A program made the translations under genes and the position numbers. The notes below the pieces were generated by a model. That model saw only the letters and a program-made list of their open reading frames with translations. It made no database searches and was not told the origin of the DNA. From NCBI GenBank assembly GCA_024330185.1, contig JANDLV010000024.1:1-59406 (forward strand): a stretch of DNA of 59,406 bases, in the 5' to 3' direction. This document shows positions 8,431-27,948 of the stretch, piece after piece; positions within the stretch are counted from its first letter, which is position 1; every line of letters starts with the position of its first letter. This DNA comes from Candidatus Siliceabacter maunaloa. GTDB lineage: Bacteria > Actinomycetota > Thermoleophilia > Solirubrobacterales > Solirubrobacteraceae.

Positions 8431-8826
8431 CTACTCGCCCCGTGCGAGGTCACGCAGTGCGCGTCGTCGATCGGGGTCGAGCTCCTCGATGTGGCGGGCG
8501 AAGTGCGCGAGGGCCTGCTCGCCGAACTGGTCGACGAGCGCGACAACCTCAGCACGCGTGCGGGCCTCGAGGTAGGCGTCGCGCGTCACGGCCGGGGAAT
8601 AGAGGTCCGCCTTGCCCCTCCGGCGGCGGCTGAGCAGGCCCTTCTGGGCGAGGCGATGCACCGTGGTCAGAAAGGTGGTGTAGGCGCGTTGCTTGGTCGT
8701 GCGGGCGTTGACGGCTCGCATGAGGTCGCGTACCGAGATCTCGCCAGCCGTCCACAGCTCCTCCATGAGTTCCGCCTCGAGTCCCTGCACGGCAGGCGGC
8801 GGAGAGACGGATCGACCTCTGGCCAC
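8431..8826 (-). CDS. BlaI/MecI/CopY-family repressor
   Basis: A 131-aa winged-helix repressor of the penicillinase-repressor family: LEAELMEELW at the N-terminus, then RAYTTFLTTVHRLAQKGLL as recognition helix and wing start, and a C-terminal dimerisation helix. The GTG at 8826 is the only start consistent with the family N-terminus. It lies 11 bp after the CDF exporter on the same strand, and the operon start carries the GCTACTACA-like box. There is no M56 sensor protease beside this copy. It is closely similar to the second copy at 27556-27948. Confidence 0.87.
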   Translation of the reverse strand: MARGRSVSPPPAVQGLEAELMEELWTAGEISVRDLMRAVNARTTKQRAYTTFLTTVHRLAQKGLLSRRRRGKADLYSPAVTRDAYLEARTRAEVVALVDQFGEQALAHFARHIEELDPDRRRALRDLARGE

Positions 8827-11269: not shown

Positions 11270-13464
11270 ATGCGTCGCCTGCTCCTCGCCGTCCCGGCCG
11301 TCGCGCTCGCGGGGCTCGTCCTCGCACCCGCTGCGTGGGGCCACGCCGCCTTCGTCGGGTCCACGCCCGAGCCCGGCCAGCGTCTCGAGGCCTCGCCGCA
11401 GGAGCTGTCGCTGAGGTTCACCGAGCCGCTCATCGAGGATCTCTCCCGTGCCACGCTGGTGGCCGAGGCGGGCGACCGCGAGGTGCCCGCACGCGTCGAG
11501 ATCACGGCGCAGCGCAGGATGACGGTGACCCCCGTCGACCCGCTCGCCCGTGGTGCCTACCGCGTGCAGTGGCGCTCGGTCTCGCCGCTGGACGGCCATG
11601 CGCTCGAGGGGAGGGTGTCCTTCGGCGTGCGCGCGGCCGCGGTGAGGGGCGCAGGCTCGCTGGAGCAGAGCCCGCTGGCCCGGCAGGGCTGGATCCGCGT
11701 GGTCATGCGCCTGGCGCTGTACGCCTTCGGGCTGACCTTCGCCGCCGCCCTGCTCCTCGCGCTCGTGCTCGGCGGTCGCGGGTGGCTGGCGCCCCGCCAG
11801 GTCGACGGGGCCGTCGACGGGCCGGCGGTGCGCGCCCGCCAGCAGCGCCTGACCGGCGACCTGGCCTGGCTGACCGTCGGGGCCGCTGTGGGCATCGTGC
11901 TCGCCGAGGCCATCGACGCGGCGGACGGGCTCGATCCCGCGCGGATGAGCGTCTACCTGCTGGACAGCCCCGCGGGCGCCGCCCGGACCGGGTTGGTGCT
12001 GCTGGCCCTCGCGGCGGCGCTGGCGTGGCGGCAGCGTCCGCGCACGGGGGCCGCCCTGATCGTCCTGGCCCTGGGGGCGATCGCGGCGTCGGGGCACGCC
12101 GCCTCGGCGACGCCGCGCCTGGCCGCGATCGCCAACGACTGGCTGCACCTGCTGGGCGGTGCGCTGTGGCTGGGCGGGATGGCCTTCCTCGCCGCCGTCT
12201 GGGGGCCGAGCCTGCGCCGCGGCGGGGATGGCGCGCGCCGCGCGGTCGCGCGCCACGTGCTTCCCGCCTTCGGACGCGTCGCCCTGCCCGCCTTCGTGCT
12301 GGTGGCGGGTACGGGCCTGGTGAGCCTGATCCTGCAGCTCGGTTCGCCCAGCGCCCTGTGGACGACCGACTACGGCCGGCTCCTCGCTGTGAAGATCGTC
12401 GTGGTGGGACTGATCGCGCTGGCCAGCGCCGTGCACGCCCTGCGCCTGCGCCCGCGCCTGCTGGCCGTCCATCCGCCTCCGCGCGAGCGAGACGTGCGGC
12501 GCCACTGGCGCCTGGTGCGCGCCGAGCCCGCGATGGCCCTGGCGTCGTGGCCGCCGTCGCGCTCCTGGTGGCCTTCCCGTTGTCGCCCAGCCAGCTCGGC
12601 GAGGCCCGTGACGCCCAGGCCGCGTCGCCCTGCGACCCCTGCCCGCTGCCCCGCCCGGCGGCCGACCAGCTCCCGGTGGCCGCCGACGCGGGCATGCAGC
12701 TCGTCGGCGCGTGGATCGGCCGCGACGGCGACCGGCTGAGCGGCGAGGTACGGGTGCTCGGACCTGACGGCGGGCCCTCCCGGGCCCCGTTTCGGGTGCT
12801 CGGGGCACGCACCGAGCCGTGCGGACCCGCCTGCCTGCGCTTCTCGACGCGCGCCGCGGCGGACGCCCTGGCGGTGGCGGTGCGCGAGCCCGGGCGCAGC
12901 CACCGCATCGAGCTGCCCACCCGCTGGGAGCAGGGCGCCGACGACCGGGCCCGGCGCATGCTCGAACGCGCGCAGCGGGCCATGCGCGACCTCGACACCG
13001 CGGTCGAGCGCGAGCGCGCGACCAGCGGGATCGGGCCGGGCGCACGCACGACCTATCGCATCCAGGCACCCGACCGCATGGCCTGGAGCACCGATCGCGG
13101 GATCCAGACGGTCGTGATCGGCGATCGCCAGTGGCGGCGCGCCCCCGGCCTGGGCCCGGGCTGGCACGAGGGCTCCTACGGGGGCGGCCTGGCCTTCCGC
13201 ACGCGCACCTGGTTTCGCTGGACCCCATTCGCGCGGTCCGTCCGCCTGCTGGGGATCGAGCGCGTCGACGGACGACGCCTCGCCCGTCTCGCCCTCTTCG
13301 ACGAGGGAACGCCGGTGTGGATGGGCATGGCCGTCGATCTAGAGACCTACCGGGTCCTTCGCGTCCGCTCGCTGACGCCGTCGACCTTCACCACCACCAG
13401 GACGTCCGACTTCGATGAGCCCATGGACATCGTCACCCCCGAGGAGGCCAGTGATGGACGTTGA
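11270..13464 (+). CDS. CopC-CopD fusion with C-terminal extracytoplasmic domain (single-base frameshift)
   Basis: After a signal peptide, a CopC domain begins at GHAAFVGSTPEPG (the His next to the signal site is a Cu ligand) and ends with SPLDGHALEGRVSFGV. A CopD domain of about eight membrane helices follows (HAASA; NDWLHLLGGALWLGGM). The frame then breaks near base 12541: the first frame runs out at 12739, while the natural continuation (VVAAVALLVAFPLSPSQL) is in another frame and runs to 13464. One missing G at the GG of 12541-12542 would restore about 731 codons. The final 230 residues resemble a LolA-like lipid/protein-carrier domain. Copper import/delivery to exported enzymes is inferred. 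Sequencing error or real mutation cannot be separated here. Confidence 0.8.
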
Positions 13465-14159: not shown

Positions 14160-14765
14160 TCAAGCCTCCGCATGGCCTGAGCCGCCCGCGCCGTGGAGGA
14201 CGTCGCGCTGGTCGATGATGTCCTGTGCGATGGCGCCGAGGCTGAGGTTGCGGTTGCGTGCGGCGCGCTGGAGGCGTGCGTGCGCATCGGCTTCGGAGAG
14301 GCTGAATGCGTCCATGAGCAGGCCCTTGGCGCGTTCGACGAGCTTGCGGTCGGCCAGCAACCGGCGTGCCCGCTCTACCTCGGCCTCGAGGGCCAGCAGA
14401 TCCTCGTGGCGCGCGGCCGCGACGCGGATGGCCGCGTCGAGTTGGCGGTCGTCGATGGGCTTGGTCAGGTAGGCAGCCGCACCGCTGGCCACGGAGCGGT
14501 CCACGAGCTGAGGATCATCCACGCCGGTGAGGATCACGACAGGCCGCCGGCGCCCTTCGGCGGCCAGCGCCGCGGCGGCAGCGAGACCGTCGAGGCGCGG
14601 CATGTCGATGTCGAAGAGATACAGGTCGGGTGTGTCGACCCGGGCGACGTTGACGGCTTCGACGCCGTCGTGGGCGGGTCCGATCGGTTGGTGGCCGAGC
14701 CGACGCAGGCGCTCGGCGAGCCCAAGCGCGATGATCGGCTCGTCCTCGGCGATCAGGATGCGCAT
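14160..14765 (-). CDS. ANTAR-domain response regulator (PdtaR-like)
   Basis: A 201-aa regulator. The receiver domain has the acidic pair in IAEDEP, the phosphorylated Asp in LFDIDMP, Thr in VILTG and Lys in YLTKP. The C-terminus is an ANTAR domain (LADRKLVERAKGLLMD, then the Leu/Ala-rich helices to DIIDQR), which binds paired hairpins in nascent RNA and stops transcription termination. The gene overlaps the partner kinase by 13 bp. Confidence 0.9.
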   Translation of the reverse strand: MRILIAEDEPIIALGLAERLRRLGHQPIGPAHDGVEAVNVARVDTPDLYLFDIDMPRLDGLAAAAALAAEGRRRPVVILTGVDDPQLVDRSVASGAAAYLTKPIDDRQLDAAIRVAAARHEDLLALEAEVERARRLLADRKLVERAKGLLMDAFSLSEADAHARLQRAARNRNLSLGAIAQDIIDQRDVLHGAGGSGHAEA

Positions 14766-15865
14766 CGGTCGGCGTCGAAGCGGACTTCCGCGCGCGTGCC
14801 GGCGGGAGTCGTGGAGGACAGGGTGAAGCTGCCCTGCAGGCCTCGTCCGACGATCTGGCGCACGAGTTGCAGTCCGAGGTGCTCGGTGTGGTGGCGTGGC
14901 GTATTGCCGGCATCGAGCACCTCGAGCACCATGGGATCTCGACCGTGCAGAAGCACCCGGATCGGCGGACTGCCGTGGCGCGCCGCGTTGGCGATCAGCT
15001 CGTTCGCGACGATGCCGAGCTGTTGCGCGCAGGTTGGGCCGAGGTCGCGCTCCTCCGCCACGATCTGAGCGTCCACCGCCGCCGCAGCGGTGATGGCTTC
15101 GAGCAGCGCAGGCGCGCTGACCGCTGCTCCGCGGCGCTCGGCCAGGAGTTGGTGCACGGCGGCGATCGACCGGATCCGCTCGGCCGTCTCGTCGAAGGTC
15201 TCGGCGCCGGCGCCGGCGTCCGCCGGTCGGCCGAGCAGCAGGATGTCGGCCACCGTCTGCAGGCTGTTCTTCACGCGGTGATGGGACTCGGCGAGCAGCG
15301 TGTGCTCGAGGTCCGCGCGAGCGCTCGCTCGAGCGCGGGCCGCCGCTTCGCGCTTGACCATCCGGGCCAGTGCGAGCGCGAGCGTCGTCGCGGCCGCCAG
15401 CAGCGCCACGCGCATTGCCAACGCACCCGCCTCCAGGGCACCGGGCGCCAGCGCCATGACGGCGAGGTACGCGATCCCGGCTACGGCGAGCCACACTGCG
15501 CGGCGCCGGCCGCTATGCACGGTGGCCAGGAACGGTGCGACCAGGAACAGCAGCAGATCGAAGCCGGCGTGCGCTCCCGCCGTGAGGACCAACGCGCTGA
15601 CGAACGCGAGCAGGCCGCCCGACCACGCGTCGAGCAGCAGGTGGCCGCGGCTCGCCGTCAGCCGGCGCTCCCACGGCACGAGCATCATCGCGGCGTTGAT
15701 CGCGGCGGCCGCGCCCGTCAGGGCGAGCGGCGGCGCCAGGCTGTGGGTCGGCAGTCCGAGGGCAAGCCCCGCCAACACCGCGGTGATCGACAGCCAGCCG
15801 AGCCAGAAGCCGGCGCGCAGCGCCGCCAGGCGGGTCTCGAGCTCGGCGGGGCGCTCTTCATGCAT
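14753..15865 (-). CDS. HisKA_2-type sensor histidine kinase (PdtaS-like)
   Basis: A 370-aa kinase: about six N-terminal membrane helices, a short coiled segment, then the phosphoacceptor motif ESHHRVKNSLQTVADIL of the HisKA_2/HWE-like group and an ATPase domain with IVANELIANAARHG (N box) and HLGLQLVRQIV. It should phosphorylate the ANTAR regulator encoded next. The membrane sensor region has no known ligand domain. The first gene of the pair starts at an ATG (15865); no operator was recognised. Confidence 0.88.
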   Translation of the reverse strand: MHEERPAELETRLAALRAGFWLGWLSITAVLAGLALGLPTHSLAPPLALTGAAAAINAAMMLVPWERRLTASRGHLLLDAWSGGLLAFVSALVLTAGAHAGFDLLLFLVAPFLATVHSGRRRAVWLAVAGIAYLAVMALAPGALEAGALAMRVALLAAATTLALALARMVKREAAARARASARADLEHTLLAESHHRVKNSLQTVADILLLGRPADAGAGAETFDETAERIRSIAAVHQLLAERRGAAVSAPALLEAITAAAAVDAQIVAEERDLGPTCAQQLGIVANELIANAARHGSPPIRVLLHGRDPMVLEVLDAGNTPRHHTEHLGLQLVRQIVGRGLQGSFTLSSTTPAGTRAEVRFDADRCAS

Positions 15866-15971
15866 GGGCCCAGCGTACGACCGTGCTAGCGTCCGGCACG
15901 GCGTCCACGACCGGCGCCGCCGAGGTCACGGCTGCCTCTCCTTTCCTTGACGTGCCCGAAAGGAGATCGCC

Positions 15972-16034
15972 GTGTTGGCCACCGAACTTGAGCTGGGCGA
16001 GACCGCGCCCGACGCCCGCCTCGCCCGCTGCTGA
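15972..16034 (+). CDS. 20-codon leader ORF before the Myb-repeat gene
   Basis: A GTG-started 20-codon frame with a strong ribosome site (AAAGGAG at 15959-15965) ends in TGA one base before the ATG of the next gene (TGAGATG). The next gene has no ribosome site of its own, so ribosomes leaving this frame could reinitiate there. The peptide starts MLATELELGETAPD, a little like redoxin N-termini, so it could also be a gene remnant. Function unproven. Confidence 0.4.
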   Translation: MLATELELGETAPDARLARC

Positions 16035-16035
16035 G

Positions 16036-17103
16036 ATGGCGCCCCGCTGGATGCCAGAGGAGGATCGTCTCCTGCGCACTCTCTACGCGGAGGGCACGCC
16101 GGTCCGGGCGATCGCCCGGCAGGCCGGCCGCTCCGAGGACGCGGTCAGTGAGCGACGGCGGACGCTGGGGATCGCACCCCGTCCGCGTAGTCGGGCGTGG
16201 ACCATGGCCGAGGACGAGTTCATCCGAGCCGGCGCAGCGATCGACCTGCCGGCGCCCGTGATCGCCGTGCGTCTGAGGCGTTCGCCGGAGGATGTTCGAC
16301 GGCGCCGGGGTGCGCTGGTTGGCGTCGCCCGGCTCGGGGCCCTCTACTCCGCCGGCGACGACGACGCGATCCGACGGTGTTGGGCGGATGGTGGGGACGT
16401 ACCTGCGCTGGCGCAGCGACTCGGTCGCTCCGCGGGCGCGATCCGGCTGCACGCGACGAAGCTCGGCCTGCACGATCCACCGTCCCGCCGGCGCTGGAGC
16501 CCAGCCGAGGACGCCGCTGTGCGCGACGGCTACGAGCTCGGGCTGACCTGTGAGCAGATCGTCCGGGAGCTGTCTGGACGGACGGCGCCCGCGGTCGCGG
16601 CGCGGGCCGCCAAGCTCGGCCTGGCGACCTACGCACGAGCCTGGACGCCCTCCGACGACCGAGCGCTTCGCCGGCTCAACCGTGACGGGGTGGGGCTCGT
16701 ACGCGCCGCACGGCTCCTCGCACGCACCCCGGAAGCGCTGCGCGCGCGCACGCGAAAACTGGGACTCGCGCCGCTGTACGCGCCGCCCCCCAAACGCCAG
16801 GGGCGGCCTTGGACGATCGACGAGGACGACCTGCTGGCGCTGCACGCCGGGCTCAACCCGGCCGCGCTGGCCGAGCTGGTCGAGCGCTCTCCCGAGGCGG
16901 TGACCCAGCGCCTGCGACGCCTCGGCCTGCGCCGGGGCGCCGAGCGTTCACCACATCACCCCGTGGCTGCCCGTAAGGGTCTCACTCCCGGCGAGCTGAC
17001 CATGGTCACTCGCGAGCTGCGAGTCGGCGGACCGCGACGGCGCCTCGCACTCGCTCAGAGACTTCACGTGCCACCCGCTGACCTCCGCCGCGTCACCGTA
17101 TGA
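16036..17103 (+). CDS. Protein of six to seven tandem Myb/SANT-like HTH repeats
   Basis: A 355-aa protein made almost entirely of repeats of about 42-50 residues, each beginning W-(T/S)-x-x-(E/D)-D and ending in a recognition-type helix with ...RR-x-LGL. Repeat starts are MPEEDRLLR, WTMAEDEFI, YSAGDDDAI, WSPAEDAAV, WTPSDDRAL, WTIDEDDLL and a weaker LTPGELTMV. Single Myb-like helices occur in phage and bacterial regulators, but an all-repeat array is uncommon. Sequence-specific DNA binding or DNA-coating is inferred; no enzymatic domain is present. Its stop overlaps the next start (ATGA). ATG 16036 is the start consistent with the first repeat. Confidence 0.75.
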   Translation: MAPRWMPEEDRLLRTLYAEGTPVRAIARQAGRSEDAVSERRRTLGIAPRPRSRAWTMAEDEFIRAGAAIDLPAPVIAVRLRRSPEDVRRRRGALVGVARLGALYSAGDDDAIRRCWADGGDVPALAQRLGRSAGAIRLHATKLGLHDPPSRRRWSPAEDAAVRDGYELGLTCEQIVRELSGRTAPAVAARAAKLGLATYARAWTPSDDRALRRLNRDGVGLVRAARLLARTPEALRARTRKLGLAPLYAPPPKRQGRPWTIDEDDLLALHAGLNPAALAELVERSPEAVTQRLRRLGLRRGAERSPHHPVAARKGLTPGELTMVTRELRVGGPRRRLALAQRLHVPPADLRRVTV

Positions 17104-17396
17104 ACTCGTTGACCCGTCTGCGTTACGTCGCACTCGCCGAAGCAACCAGTTTCCTGGCGCTCCTGGTCGCCGCGTACCTGAAGCGCCAGGACCAAGGCGA
17201 GCTCGGCGTCCAGATCCTCGGCCCGATCCATGGGGCGCTCTTCCTCGCGTATGTGCTGATAGCGATGAACATCCGCGCGCAGGCTCGCTGGAGTGCCCGG
17301 GCCACCGCCGGCATCCTCCTGGGTGCGGTCGTCCCCTTCGGAGGCTACGTCGTCGACCGCTGGCTCGCGAAGCTCCCGGCCTCCGACGACCTGTAG
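17100..17396 (+). CDS. DUF3817-family small membrane protein
   Basis: A 98-aa membrane protein with three hydrophobic segments. The sequence YVALAEATSFLALL...PIHGALFLAYVL...PFGGYVVDRWL is typical of DUF3817, small actinobacterial membrane proteins of unknown role. Its ATG overlaps the stop of the Myb-repeat gene. Confidence 0.8.
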   Translation: MNSLTRLRYVALAEATSFLALLVAAYLKRQDQGELGVQILGPIHGALFLAYVLIAMNIRAQARWSARATAGILLGAVVPFGGYVVDRWLAKLPASDDL

Positions 17397-26627: not shown

Positions 26628-27563
26628 CTACCGCCCGAGGCGACGAGCCAGCGAGCTTCGCGCGCGCAGCACCGTCGCCGCGCCGACGACCAGCGGGAGG
26701 CCGGCCATCGCCAGCATGCAGGATTGGGCGGCGAGCAACGGCACGTTGAGCTCGACCCCCGCGCCCGTGGCCTCGACGCGCAACGCCACGACGAGCACGG
26801 CGGTCAGGGCGAGCAGCGCCCACGCCAGCAGGGCCGCCGGAAGCTGCCACGGGGCGCGTTCGCCCATCAGGTGGTCGACGCGCTCGGGCGCGATGCCGAC
26901 CACCGCGGGGTCGGCGGCCTCGAAGGAGAGCAGTGCGCAGGCCAGCGGCGCGGCGTCGTTCCGGCTGGCCCGGACGGCCTCGCGGTCGGCGGCCAGCTCG
27001 GCCAGCTCCGCGTAGCGCTCGCTCAGCCGGCGCAGCGCGGGCAGGAAGAACAGGCCGTCGGCCAGCGCCCGTGAGAGGACGGCGCGCAGTGGATCGTGAA
27101 GGCGGGCGTGGTGTCGCTCGTGGGCGACGACGGCGGCGAGCTCGAGACGATCCAGGGTCGCCAGCGTCCCGGTCGAGATGTAGATGCGCGGGCGCAGCAC
27201 CCCGGCGCAGAAGGCGATCGGCCTGTCGCCGCCGATGACCGTCACCCGCTGCCCATCAATGGTGCGGTTCTCCACCACGTGCAGGGCGCGCAGCACCCGT
27301 CGGGAGGCGCGAAGCTGACGAACGGCCGACCACAGCGTGCGTCCGAGCACGGCGAAGGCCAGAACACCCAGTAGGAGGCTCACGATTCCCGCCAGGCTCG
27401 CATCGGGCAGCAGCACCCGCTGGCATGCCTCGAGCAGCGTCGCTGTCGACGGAGGCGTGAGCGAGAGCTGCCCGGCCGCGGCGAGCGAGGCGTAGCCCAC
27501 GGCGCCAAGGCCCAGCGCCGCCAGCAGAAGCTGCAGGCCCAGGATGGTGCGAGGCTTAGTCAC
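26628..27563 (-). CDS. M56-family (BlaR1-like) membrane metallopeptidase
   Basis: A 311-aa membrane protease: zinc motif VVAHERHHARLHDP (HExxH) and downstream ELAADREA giving the third ligand, between membrane helices. It lacks the penicillin-sensor domain of BlaR1, so it must respond to another signal. It overlaps the BlaI-type gene by 8 bp. Cleavage of that repressor on sensing metal or envelope stress is the natural inference. Confidence 0.87.
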   Translation of the reverse strand: MTKPRTILGLQLLLAALGLGAVGYASLAAAGQLSLTPPSTATLLEACQRVLLPDASLAGIVSLLLGVLAFAVLGRTLWSAVRQLRASRRVLRALHVVENRTIDGQRVTVIGGDRPIAFCAGVLRPRIYISTGTLATLDRLELAAVVAHERHHARLHDPLRAVLSRALADGLFFLPALRRLSERYAELAELAADREAVRASRNDAAPLACALLSFEAADPAVVGIAPERVDHLMGERAPWQLPAALLAWALLALTAVLVVALRVEATGAGVELNVPLLAAQSCMLAMAGLPLVVGAATVLRARSSLARRLGR

Positions 27564-27948
27564 GACGCGCCAGCCGGGTGAGCTTGCGGCGCTGCTCGGG
27601 GTCCAGCGAGGCCATCTGCCGCGCGAAGTGCACGAACGCGACCTCGCCGTACTGCTCGACGACCGCGTCGACCTCCGCTTGGGCGCGCGCCTGCAAGTAG
27701 TCCTCGCGCGACAGGCACGGCTTGTAGATGTCGGTTCGTCCGCTGCGCCGGCGGCGCAGCAGACCCTTGGTGTCCAGGCGCTGCATGATGGTCATCACCG
27801 TCGTGTAGGCCCGCTGCTTGGGGCCCTGGCCGTTCAGCGCATGCAGCACCTCGCGAACGTTCGCCTCGCCCACACGCCATATCTCCTCCATGACCTCGGA
27901 CTCGAGCTCATGCAGCGGCGGCGGGACGGGACGATCTGCGGCGGTCAT
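27556..27948 (-). CDS. BlaI/MecI/CopY-family repressor (M56-linked)
   Basis: A 130-aa winged-helix repressor: LESEVMEEIWRVGEANVREVL, then RAYTTVMTIMQRLDTKGLL and a C-terminal dimerisation helix. About half identical by eye to the copy at 8431-8826. Start ATG 27948; a GTG just before (27951) is possible. Its own promoter carries the CATAGTAG variant of the shared box, which supports autoregulation. It is co-translated with the M56 protease. Confidence 0.9.
   Translation of the reverse strand: MTAADRPVPPPLHELESEVMEEIWRVGEANVREVLHALNGQGPKQRAYTTVMTIMQRLDTKGLLRRRRSGRTDIYKPCLSREDYLQARAQAEVDAVVEQYGEVAFVHFARQMASLDPEQRRKLTRLARRD

What the first reader, a model, noticed from the sequence alone, without database searches (positions are those of the whole stretch)
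16036..17103. Protein built of six or seven Myb/SANT-like repeats
The repeats cover practically the whole protein with a strict W-x(2)-(E/D)-D start and LGL end, more like a eukaryotic multi-repeat Myb than the usual single bacterial domain. It may read a long DNA site or coat DNA. No partner domain gives a hint of its job.
Basis: partly seen in the sequence, partly recalled or inferred. Interest (0 to 1): 0.65.

Follow-up and report, generated by a model that had tools for sequence, protein, structure and literature searches.

The report
Bacterial six-repeat Myb DNA-binding protein
A soil-type actinobacterium carries, in a block of metal-resistance genes, a real but rare mobile gene for a protein made almost only of six Myb DNA-binding units plus a seventh helical unit; it most likely reads one long DNA site, an architecture best known from eukaryotes.

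Summary
The ORF at 16036-17103 (355 aa) is six Myb/GcrA-type three-helix repeats plus a seventh, divergent three-helix unit, and nothing else. Pfam Myb and GcrA models pass their cut-offs, AlphaFold2 gives seven three-helix units, and the best structural matches are the GcrA DNA-binding domain, c-Myb R1-R3, SNAPc and Reb1. The gene is under purifying selection. I found it only in its own order (Solirubrobacterales and relatives): 6 full copies and 2 decayed remnants, scattered; one copy lies 0.8 kb from a TrwC relaxase. Three copies sit divergently from the same HisKA_2 kinase/ANTAR-regulator pair, with a shared hairpin element between them. In nearly all of 16 other genomes that pair faces cydA instead. 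Exposed recognition-helix residues are conserved repeat by repeat across orthologues (0.54 versus 0.29, p=4e-5). This favours reading of one long specific site over non-specific coating. Best guess: a mobile, signal-linked, site-specific regulator of the metal/mobile island. Target and effect are unproven. Phage T5 D5 and sphingomonad-plasmid proteins have similar architecture, but repeat order does not correspond to the plasmid proteins, so arrays seem to have arisen more than once. New variant of a known kind.

The parts
16036..17103 (+). multi-Myb protein gene, 355 aa
16042..16176 (+). Myb repeat 1 (residues 3-47)
16192..16326 (+). Myb repeat 2 (residues 53-97)
16339..16473 (+). Myb repeat 3 (residues 102-146), Y in place of the first W
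16489..16629 (+). Myb repeat 4 (residues 152-198), most conserved recognition helix; best structural match is the GcrA DNA-binding domain
16636..16770 (+). Myb repeat 5 (residues 201-245)
16804..16935 (+). Myb repeat 6 (residues 257-300)
16948..17100 (+). conserved C-terminal unit: RSPHHP arm and a three-helix, homeodomain-like unit (seventh, divergent); missing in one orthologue
15972..16034 (+). 20-codon ORF (GTG to TGA) with its own Shine-Dalgarno, ending 1 base before the Myb ATG; remnant of a 72-aa ORF that is complete in G040
15898..15939 (+). conserved noncoding block with hairpin element GGCGYYCACGR-N3/4-RCGCC (15900-15918), shared with G040 (two copies) and G535; candidate operator or RNA element
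15937..15966 (+). 9-bp hairpin that would cover the Shine-Dalgarno of the 20-codon ORF (TCTCCTTTC...GAAAGGAGA)
14753..15865 (-). divergent histidine kinase (HisKA_2/HWE type), membrane N-terminus by inspection
14160..14765 (-). response regulator with ANTAR RNA-binding output domain
17100..17396 (+). DUF3817 membrane protein whose ATG overlaps the Myb stop codon (ATGA); this neighbour is not conserved in the other loci

Best explanation
It is a sequence-specific double-stranded-DNA-binding regulator built as beads on a string. Six Myb/GcrA-type three-helix units, each with its own conserved recognition helix, dock in successive major-groove steps of one long site (inferred: roughly 20 bp or more, by analogy with c-Myb, SNAPc and Reb1). 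The seventh unit and RSPHHP arm add contacts or a partner-binding surface (inferred). The gene is carried by mobile or exchanged DNA in metal-resistance neighbourhoods of Solirubrobacterales. In three of six known cases it is paired with a divergent HisKA_2 kinase and ANTAR regulator, which probably set its expression (inferred from co-inheritance only). With no catalytic or sensor domain, it most likely acts by occupying promoters or other control sites of the island, possibly including the hairpin element upstream of itself, and thereby switching or silencing transcription. Shown: gene, repeats, predicted fold, selection, repeat-specific conservation, scattered distribution, linkage. Inferred: DNA binding itself, site length, target, direction of regulation.
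For: Pfam GcrA (34.3 bits, cut-off 26.9), Myb_DNA-bind_6 (31.4/22.9) and Myb_DNA-binding (30.4/24.4) all pass. The AlphaFold2 model has seven three-helix units, pLDDT 78; Foldseek top hits are SNAPc-DNA 7xur, Reb1-Ter 5eyb and c-Myb-DNA 1h88; repeat 4 matches GcrA DBD 5yiu, Z 8.6, rmsd 1.4 over 49 residues. pI about 11.5. Exposed recognition-helix positions agree between orthologues at 0.54 versus 0.29 for other exposed positions, p=4e-5; same-index repeats score 98-139 against 38-70 between indices. dN/dS 0.26-0.37 in three pairs. Six full copies in 232 genomes of the order, two remnants, absent from the sister genome G001; TrwC relaxase and ArdC near the G040 copy. The same kinase/ANTAR pair is divergent in three loci, and the two other Myb-linked kinases are the closest to the window's (72%, 61% versus 58% or less elsewhere). 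The hairpin element occurs in all three loci, twice in one.
Against: No binding experiment. The helix-3 test used positions chosen from general Myb knowledge, and some may be conserved for packing. PF13921 alone, searched in six frames, did not reach E 1e-3 on this gene, so single repeats are weak Pfam matches. The hairpin element is absent near the other three copies (L018-L020), so it may not be this protein's site. In SNAPc three Myb repeats make only two base-specific contacts (PMC9652321), so many repeats need not mean a long specific readout.
Confidence: 0.55

Rival explanations
1. A DNA-coating or architectural protein, like phage T5 D5: many weak arginine-rich repeats bind any double-stranded DNA cooperatively and compact or silence foreign or mobile DNA.
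For: PHROG 323 (D5-like) matches at 2e-38 and up to 1e-59 in orthologues. T5 D5 is annotated as a DNA-binding protein required for replication and late transcription, and a T5-like phage carries D5 among major virion-associated proteins (PMC8624392). High pI with 67 R+K of 355; only a low pTM for the relative placement of units.
Against: Repeat-specific, orthologue-conserved recognition helices are not expected of a non-specific coat. PHROG 323 is matched repeatedly by its Myb part (profile about 95-196), and T5 D5 gives no significant single-domain hit with the repeat HMM. D5's cooperative coating is recalled from older literature, not read here.
Confidence: 0.25
2. A mobile-element maintenance or transfer factor that binds an origin or partition site of an integrative or plasmid element, like the sphingomonad-plasmid arrays encoded next to a HerA/TraD-like ATPase.
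For: Sphingomonad plasmids and a Caulobacteraceae element encode seven-repeat arrays directly after a DUF87/T4CP-like ATPase gene. The G040 copy is 0.8 kb from a TrwC relaxase gene.
Against: No such ATPase or relaxase is next to the window gene or the other Solirubrobacterales copies. The repeat order does not correspond between the two groups.
Confidence: 0.13
3. A decaying passenger of no present function.
For: Patchy distribution, two degraded copies, low codon score in the window, truncated upstream ORF.
Against: Open frame in six genomes and dN/dS of 0.26-0.37.
Confidence: 0.07

Closest known systems
GcrA DNA-binding domain (Caulobacter; PF07750, 5yiu/5yiv)
   Same: Best structural match to a single repeat (Z 8.6, rmsd 1.4 over 49 aa, 26% identity); Pfam cut-off passed
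   Different: GcrA has one DBD plus a C-terminal part; here the DBD-like unit is repeated six times and only profile positions 3-60 of 155 match in the best stretch
Eukaryotic multi-repeat Myb proteins: SNAP190 (SNAPC4), Reb1, c-Myb
   Same: Tandem three-helix Myb units; top whole-model Foldseek hits
   Different: c-Myb has 3 and SNAP190 4.5 repeats (the latter called a notable exception, PMC9652321); here six plus one, short linkers, no other domain, bacterial. Overall arrangement is not predicted with confidence
Phage T5 D5 and PHROG 323
   Same: Array of helix-turn-helix units in a DNA-binding regulator; PHROG match 2e-38
   Different: D5 is 255 aa, near-neutral pI 6.3, and its units barely match the repeat HMM
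Seven-unit Myb arrays on sphingomonad plasmids and a Caulobacteraceae element
   Same: Same repeat type and about the same length, on mobile DNA
   Different: One unit is a divergent form, repeat order does not correspond, gene follows a DUF87/T4CP-like ATPase gene
PdtaS/PdtaR (mycobacterial kinase/ANTAR pair that senses copper and NO, PMC8131098)
   Same: The neighbouring kinase and regulator have the same general make-up: HisKA_2 kinase and receiver-ANTAR regulator, here in a copper-rich gene neighbourhood
   Different: No GAF or PAS match in this kinase at E 0.01; signal unknown; applies to the neighbour, not to the Myb protein

Membership tests
Myb/SANT repeat proteins | Profile match above curated cut-off | tested here: met
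   PF13921 31.4 bits (22.9) and PF00249 30.4 (24.4) for the whole protein; six-frame search with PF13921 alone did not reach E 1e-3
Myb/SANT repeat proteins | Three-helix repeats with conserved aromatic and acidic positions | tested here: met
   three helices per unit; W/Y/F, (E/D)-D, R columns
Myb/SANT repeat proteins | Binding to DNA | not testable with these tools
   No experiment; inferred from fold and conservation
GcrA | Full-length GcrA profile including the part after the DNA-binding domain | tested here: not met
   Best stretch matches profile positions 3-60 of 155 (two stretches in all)
T5 D5 / PHROG 323 | Match along the family profile in one colinear pass | tested here: not met
   T5 D5 itself matches 3-270 of 319 in one stretch; the window protein gives four separate stretches, best at 115-190
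Sphingomonad-plasmid multi-Myb arrays | Corresponding order of repeats (orthology) | tested here: not met
   Identity pairing ranks 1980 of 5040 orderings
Sphingomonad-plasmid multi-Myb arrays | Adjacent DUF87/T4CP-like ATPase gene | tested here: not met
SNAP190/Reb1-type eukaryotic multi-repeat Myb | Common descent as a multi-repeat protein | tested here: inconclusive
   Foldseek best E 2.4e-3, 16% identity, no significant PDB sequence relative among them

The most novel reading that the evidence does not exclude
A bacterial, mobile, signal-linked modular DNA reader: six Myb units each reading its own few base pairs of one long site, so that repeat order encodes site sequence. Such arrays would have been assembled independently at least twice in bacteria (Solirubrobacterales islands, sphingomonad plasmids).
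Probability: 0.3. Interest if true: 0.7.

Novelty: new variant of a known kind. Interest (0 to 1): 0.45.

Why it matters
Bacterial Myb/GcrA domains are usually single (general knowledge, not surveyed here). A protein that is nothing but six such units, with each recognition helix separately conserved, would be a natural modular DNA reader in a small bacterial protein, and would make it testable how many Myb units can act on one site. Similar but not colinear arrays on plasmids and in phages suggest that mobile elements favour this design repeatedly.

Tried and rejected
ANTAR-target RNA in the leader: no dual hexaloop (A1/G4) hairpins in the window or G535 leaders, and no excess in G040; Rfam found nothing in the window. 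So control of the Myb gene by the ANTAR regulator rests on linkage alone. Hairpin element as a general operator: relaxed matches near the other kinase loci and the other three Myb copies are at chance level by a rough count. Orthology with sphingomonad-plasmid arrays: rejected by the register test. Collection scans with the single protein in genome contigs found nothing; with the alignment only the known relatives and one Caulobacteraceae array. Matches in viral contigs were partial and not pursued. PDB sequence search gave only one marginal HTH protein (2lvs). A tidy empty-site comparison with sister genome G001 was not possible: metal genes there are rearranged over two contigs.

Full report
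Observation. The ORF 16036-17103 (+) encodes 355 aa. Pfam assigns GcrA, Myb_DNA-bind_6 and Myb_DNA-binding above their cut-offs; PHROGs gives 'transcriptional regulator, D5-like' at 2e-38. Six repeats of about 45 residues, each W/Y/F-x(3)-(E/D)-D ... R-S/T ... R ... L-G, fill residues 3-300; a conserved C-terminal part (RSPHHP..., LTPGE...RELR.GGPGR) follows. AlphaFold2 on six orthologues gives three helices in each of seven units with good local but poor global confidence (pLDDT 78, pTM 0.27), that is, well-formed beads with undefined relative placement. The C-terminal unit alone is a low-confidence three-helix unit whose hits are mostly homeodomain-like but not significant.

Structure comparison. 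The whole model's best Foldseek hits are SNAPc on its promoter element, Reb1 on its terminator site and c-Myb R1R2R3 on DNA (E 2.4e-3 to 2.8e-2). With VIA-align the best single-unit match is the GcrA DNA-binding domain (Z 8.6) and then c-Myb and R2R3 proteins; Z values of this size are modest, but the top rows are consistently Myb-type DNA-binding proteins.

Distribution. In 232 genomes of the order, six have a full copy (window, G040 70%, G535 61%, G493 54%, G492 50%, G542 41-43%) and others only fragments; G526 and G060 hold decayed pieces. A profile search of 399 genomes of the class found no further full copies, and 396 genomes of the phylum only short matches. Named carriers are Solirubrobacterales/Solirubrobacteraceae MAGs and Conexibacter sp. 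DBS9H8. The sister genome G001 lacks it. Codon-wise comparison gives dN/dS of 0.32, 0.37 and 0.26 for three pairs.

Neighbourhood. The window is rich in metal genes: P-type ATPases, multicopper oxidase, zinc-type ABC permease, cation efflux, CopC-CopD, DUF305, TlpA-like thioredoxin, and BlaI/M56 pairs. Immediately upstream and divergent are a HisKA_2 histidine kinase and a receiver-ANTAR regulator. The same pair is divergent from the Myb gene in G040 and G535. Sixteen other genomes of the order have the kinase, and in nearly all the gene on its other side resembles cydA (cytochrome bd oxidase subunit I; my reading of the sequences, no profile run), never the Myb gene. The two other Myb-linked kinases are the closest to the window's, so kinase, regulator and Myb gene appear to have travelled together. 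In G040 the cassette lies next to TrwC relaxase and ArdC genes. In G493 and G492 the Myb gene instead adjoins a BlaI/M56 pair; in G542 it lies near ArsR, rhodanese, sigma factor and thioredoxin genes.

Control region. Between kinase and Myb gene, window, G535 and G040 share a block of about 40 bp (25/30 and 29/30 matches in the best 30-base windows; shuffles reach 17-23) centred on GGCGYYCACGR-N3/4-RCGCC, a hairpin with a conserved loop; G040 has a second copy. Such sites are rare: 2 in the window's genome and 4 in G040, against 1 and 0 for the reversed pattern. In the window a 9-bp hairpin also covers the Shine-Dalgarno of a 20-codon ORF that ends one base before the Myb ATG, so translation coupling is possible. 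In G040 this ORF is a complete 72-aa ORF with a 76-aa paralogue. Whether the Myb protein, the ANTAR regulator or neither binds the element is unknown; a search for ANTAR-type paired hexaloops (criteria from PMC8164766) was negative.

Mechanism. If the array were a non-specific coat, exposed recognition-helix residues should drift. They do not: mean pairwise agreement among orthologues is 0.54 there against 0.29 at other exposed positions (Mann-Whitney p=4e-5), each repeat with its own residues, and same-index repeats score far above different-index ones. Positions were picked from general knowledge of Myb repeats, so some of the signal may be packing. I therefore favour, at about 0.55, a site-specific regulator reading one long site; a D5-like coat is the main rival at 0.25.

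Relation to known systems. T5 D5 belongs to PHROG 323 in one colinear match, the window protein only through repeated use of its Myb part. Sphingomonad plasmids and a Caulobacteraceae element encode comparable seven-unit arrays directly after a DUF87/T4CP-like ATPase gene, but repeat order shows no correspondence, which suggests independent amplification. It is thus a new variant of the Myb/GcrA kind, unusual in repeat number (SNAP190's 4.5 repeats are called the notable exception among eukaryotic Mybs, PMC9652321), not a new kind of domain.

Noticed in passing
L041-L056 (kinase loci in 16 other genomes of the order): The HisKA_2 kinase/ANTAR pair stands divergently from a gene that reads like cydA in nearly all; in three genomes the multi-Myb gene takes that place. 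Suggests the pair normally serves cytochrome bd oxidase.
   Followed up: partly
L022 6688-9107, L023, L025, L026, L027 and L034 4633-7121: A conserved overlapping or adjacent gene pair on sphingomonad plasmids and a Caulobacteraceae element: DUF87/T4CP-like ATPase followed by a seven-unit Myb array, annotated as hypothetical protein. May be a DNA-handling pair of its own.
   Followed up: partly
L007 9949-10705 (-): Two paralogous small ORFs (76 and 72 aa, 39% identical) without Pfam match between kinase and Myb gene, each behind a copy of the hairpin element; a 20-codon remnant of the second is in the window at 15972-16034.
   Followed up: partly
L021 and L008 about 12019-12228: Decayed copies of the multi-Myb gene with stops or only the C-terminal part.
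   Followed up: no
window 8431-8790 and 26628-27948 (-): BlaI-type repressor genes, one with an M56 peptidase partner, in the same metal-rich region; a BlaI/M56 pair also adjoins the Myb gene in L018 and L019.
   Followed up: partly
phage records MT835519.1 36406-37293 and MT836346.1 4186-5058: Unannotated phages from human faecal samples hold stretches 27-29% alike to most of the array.
   Followed up: no
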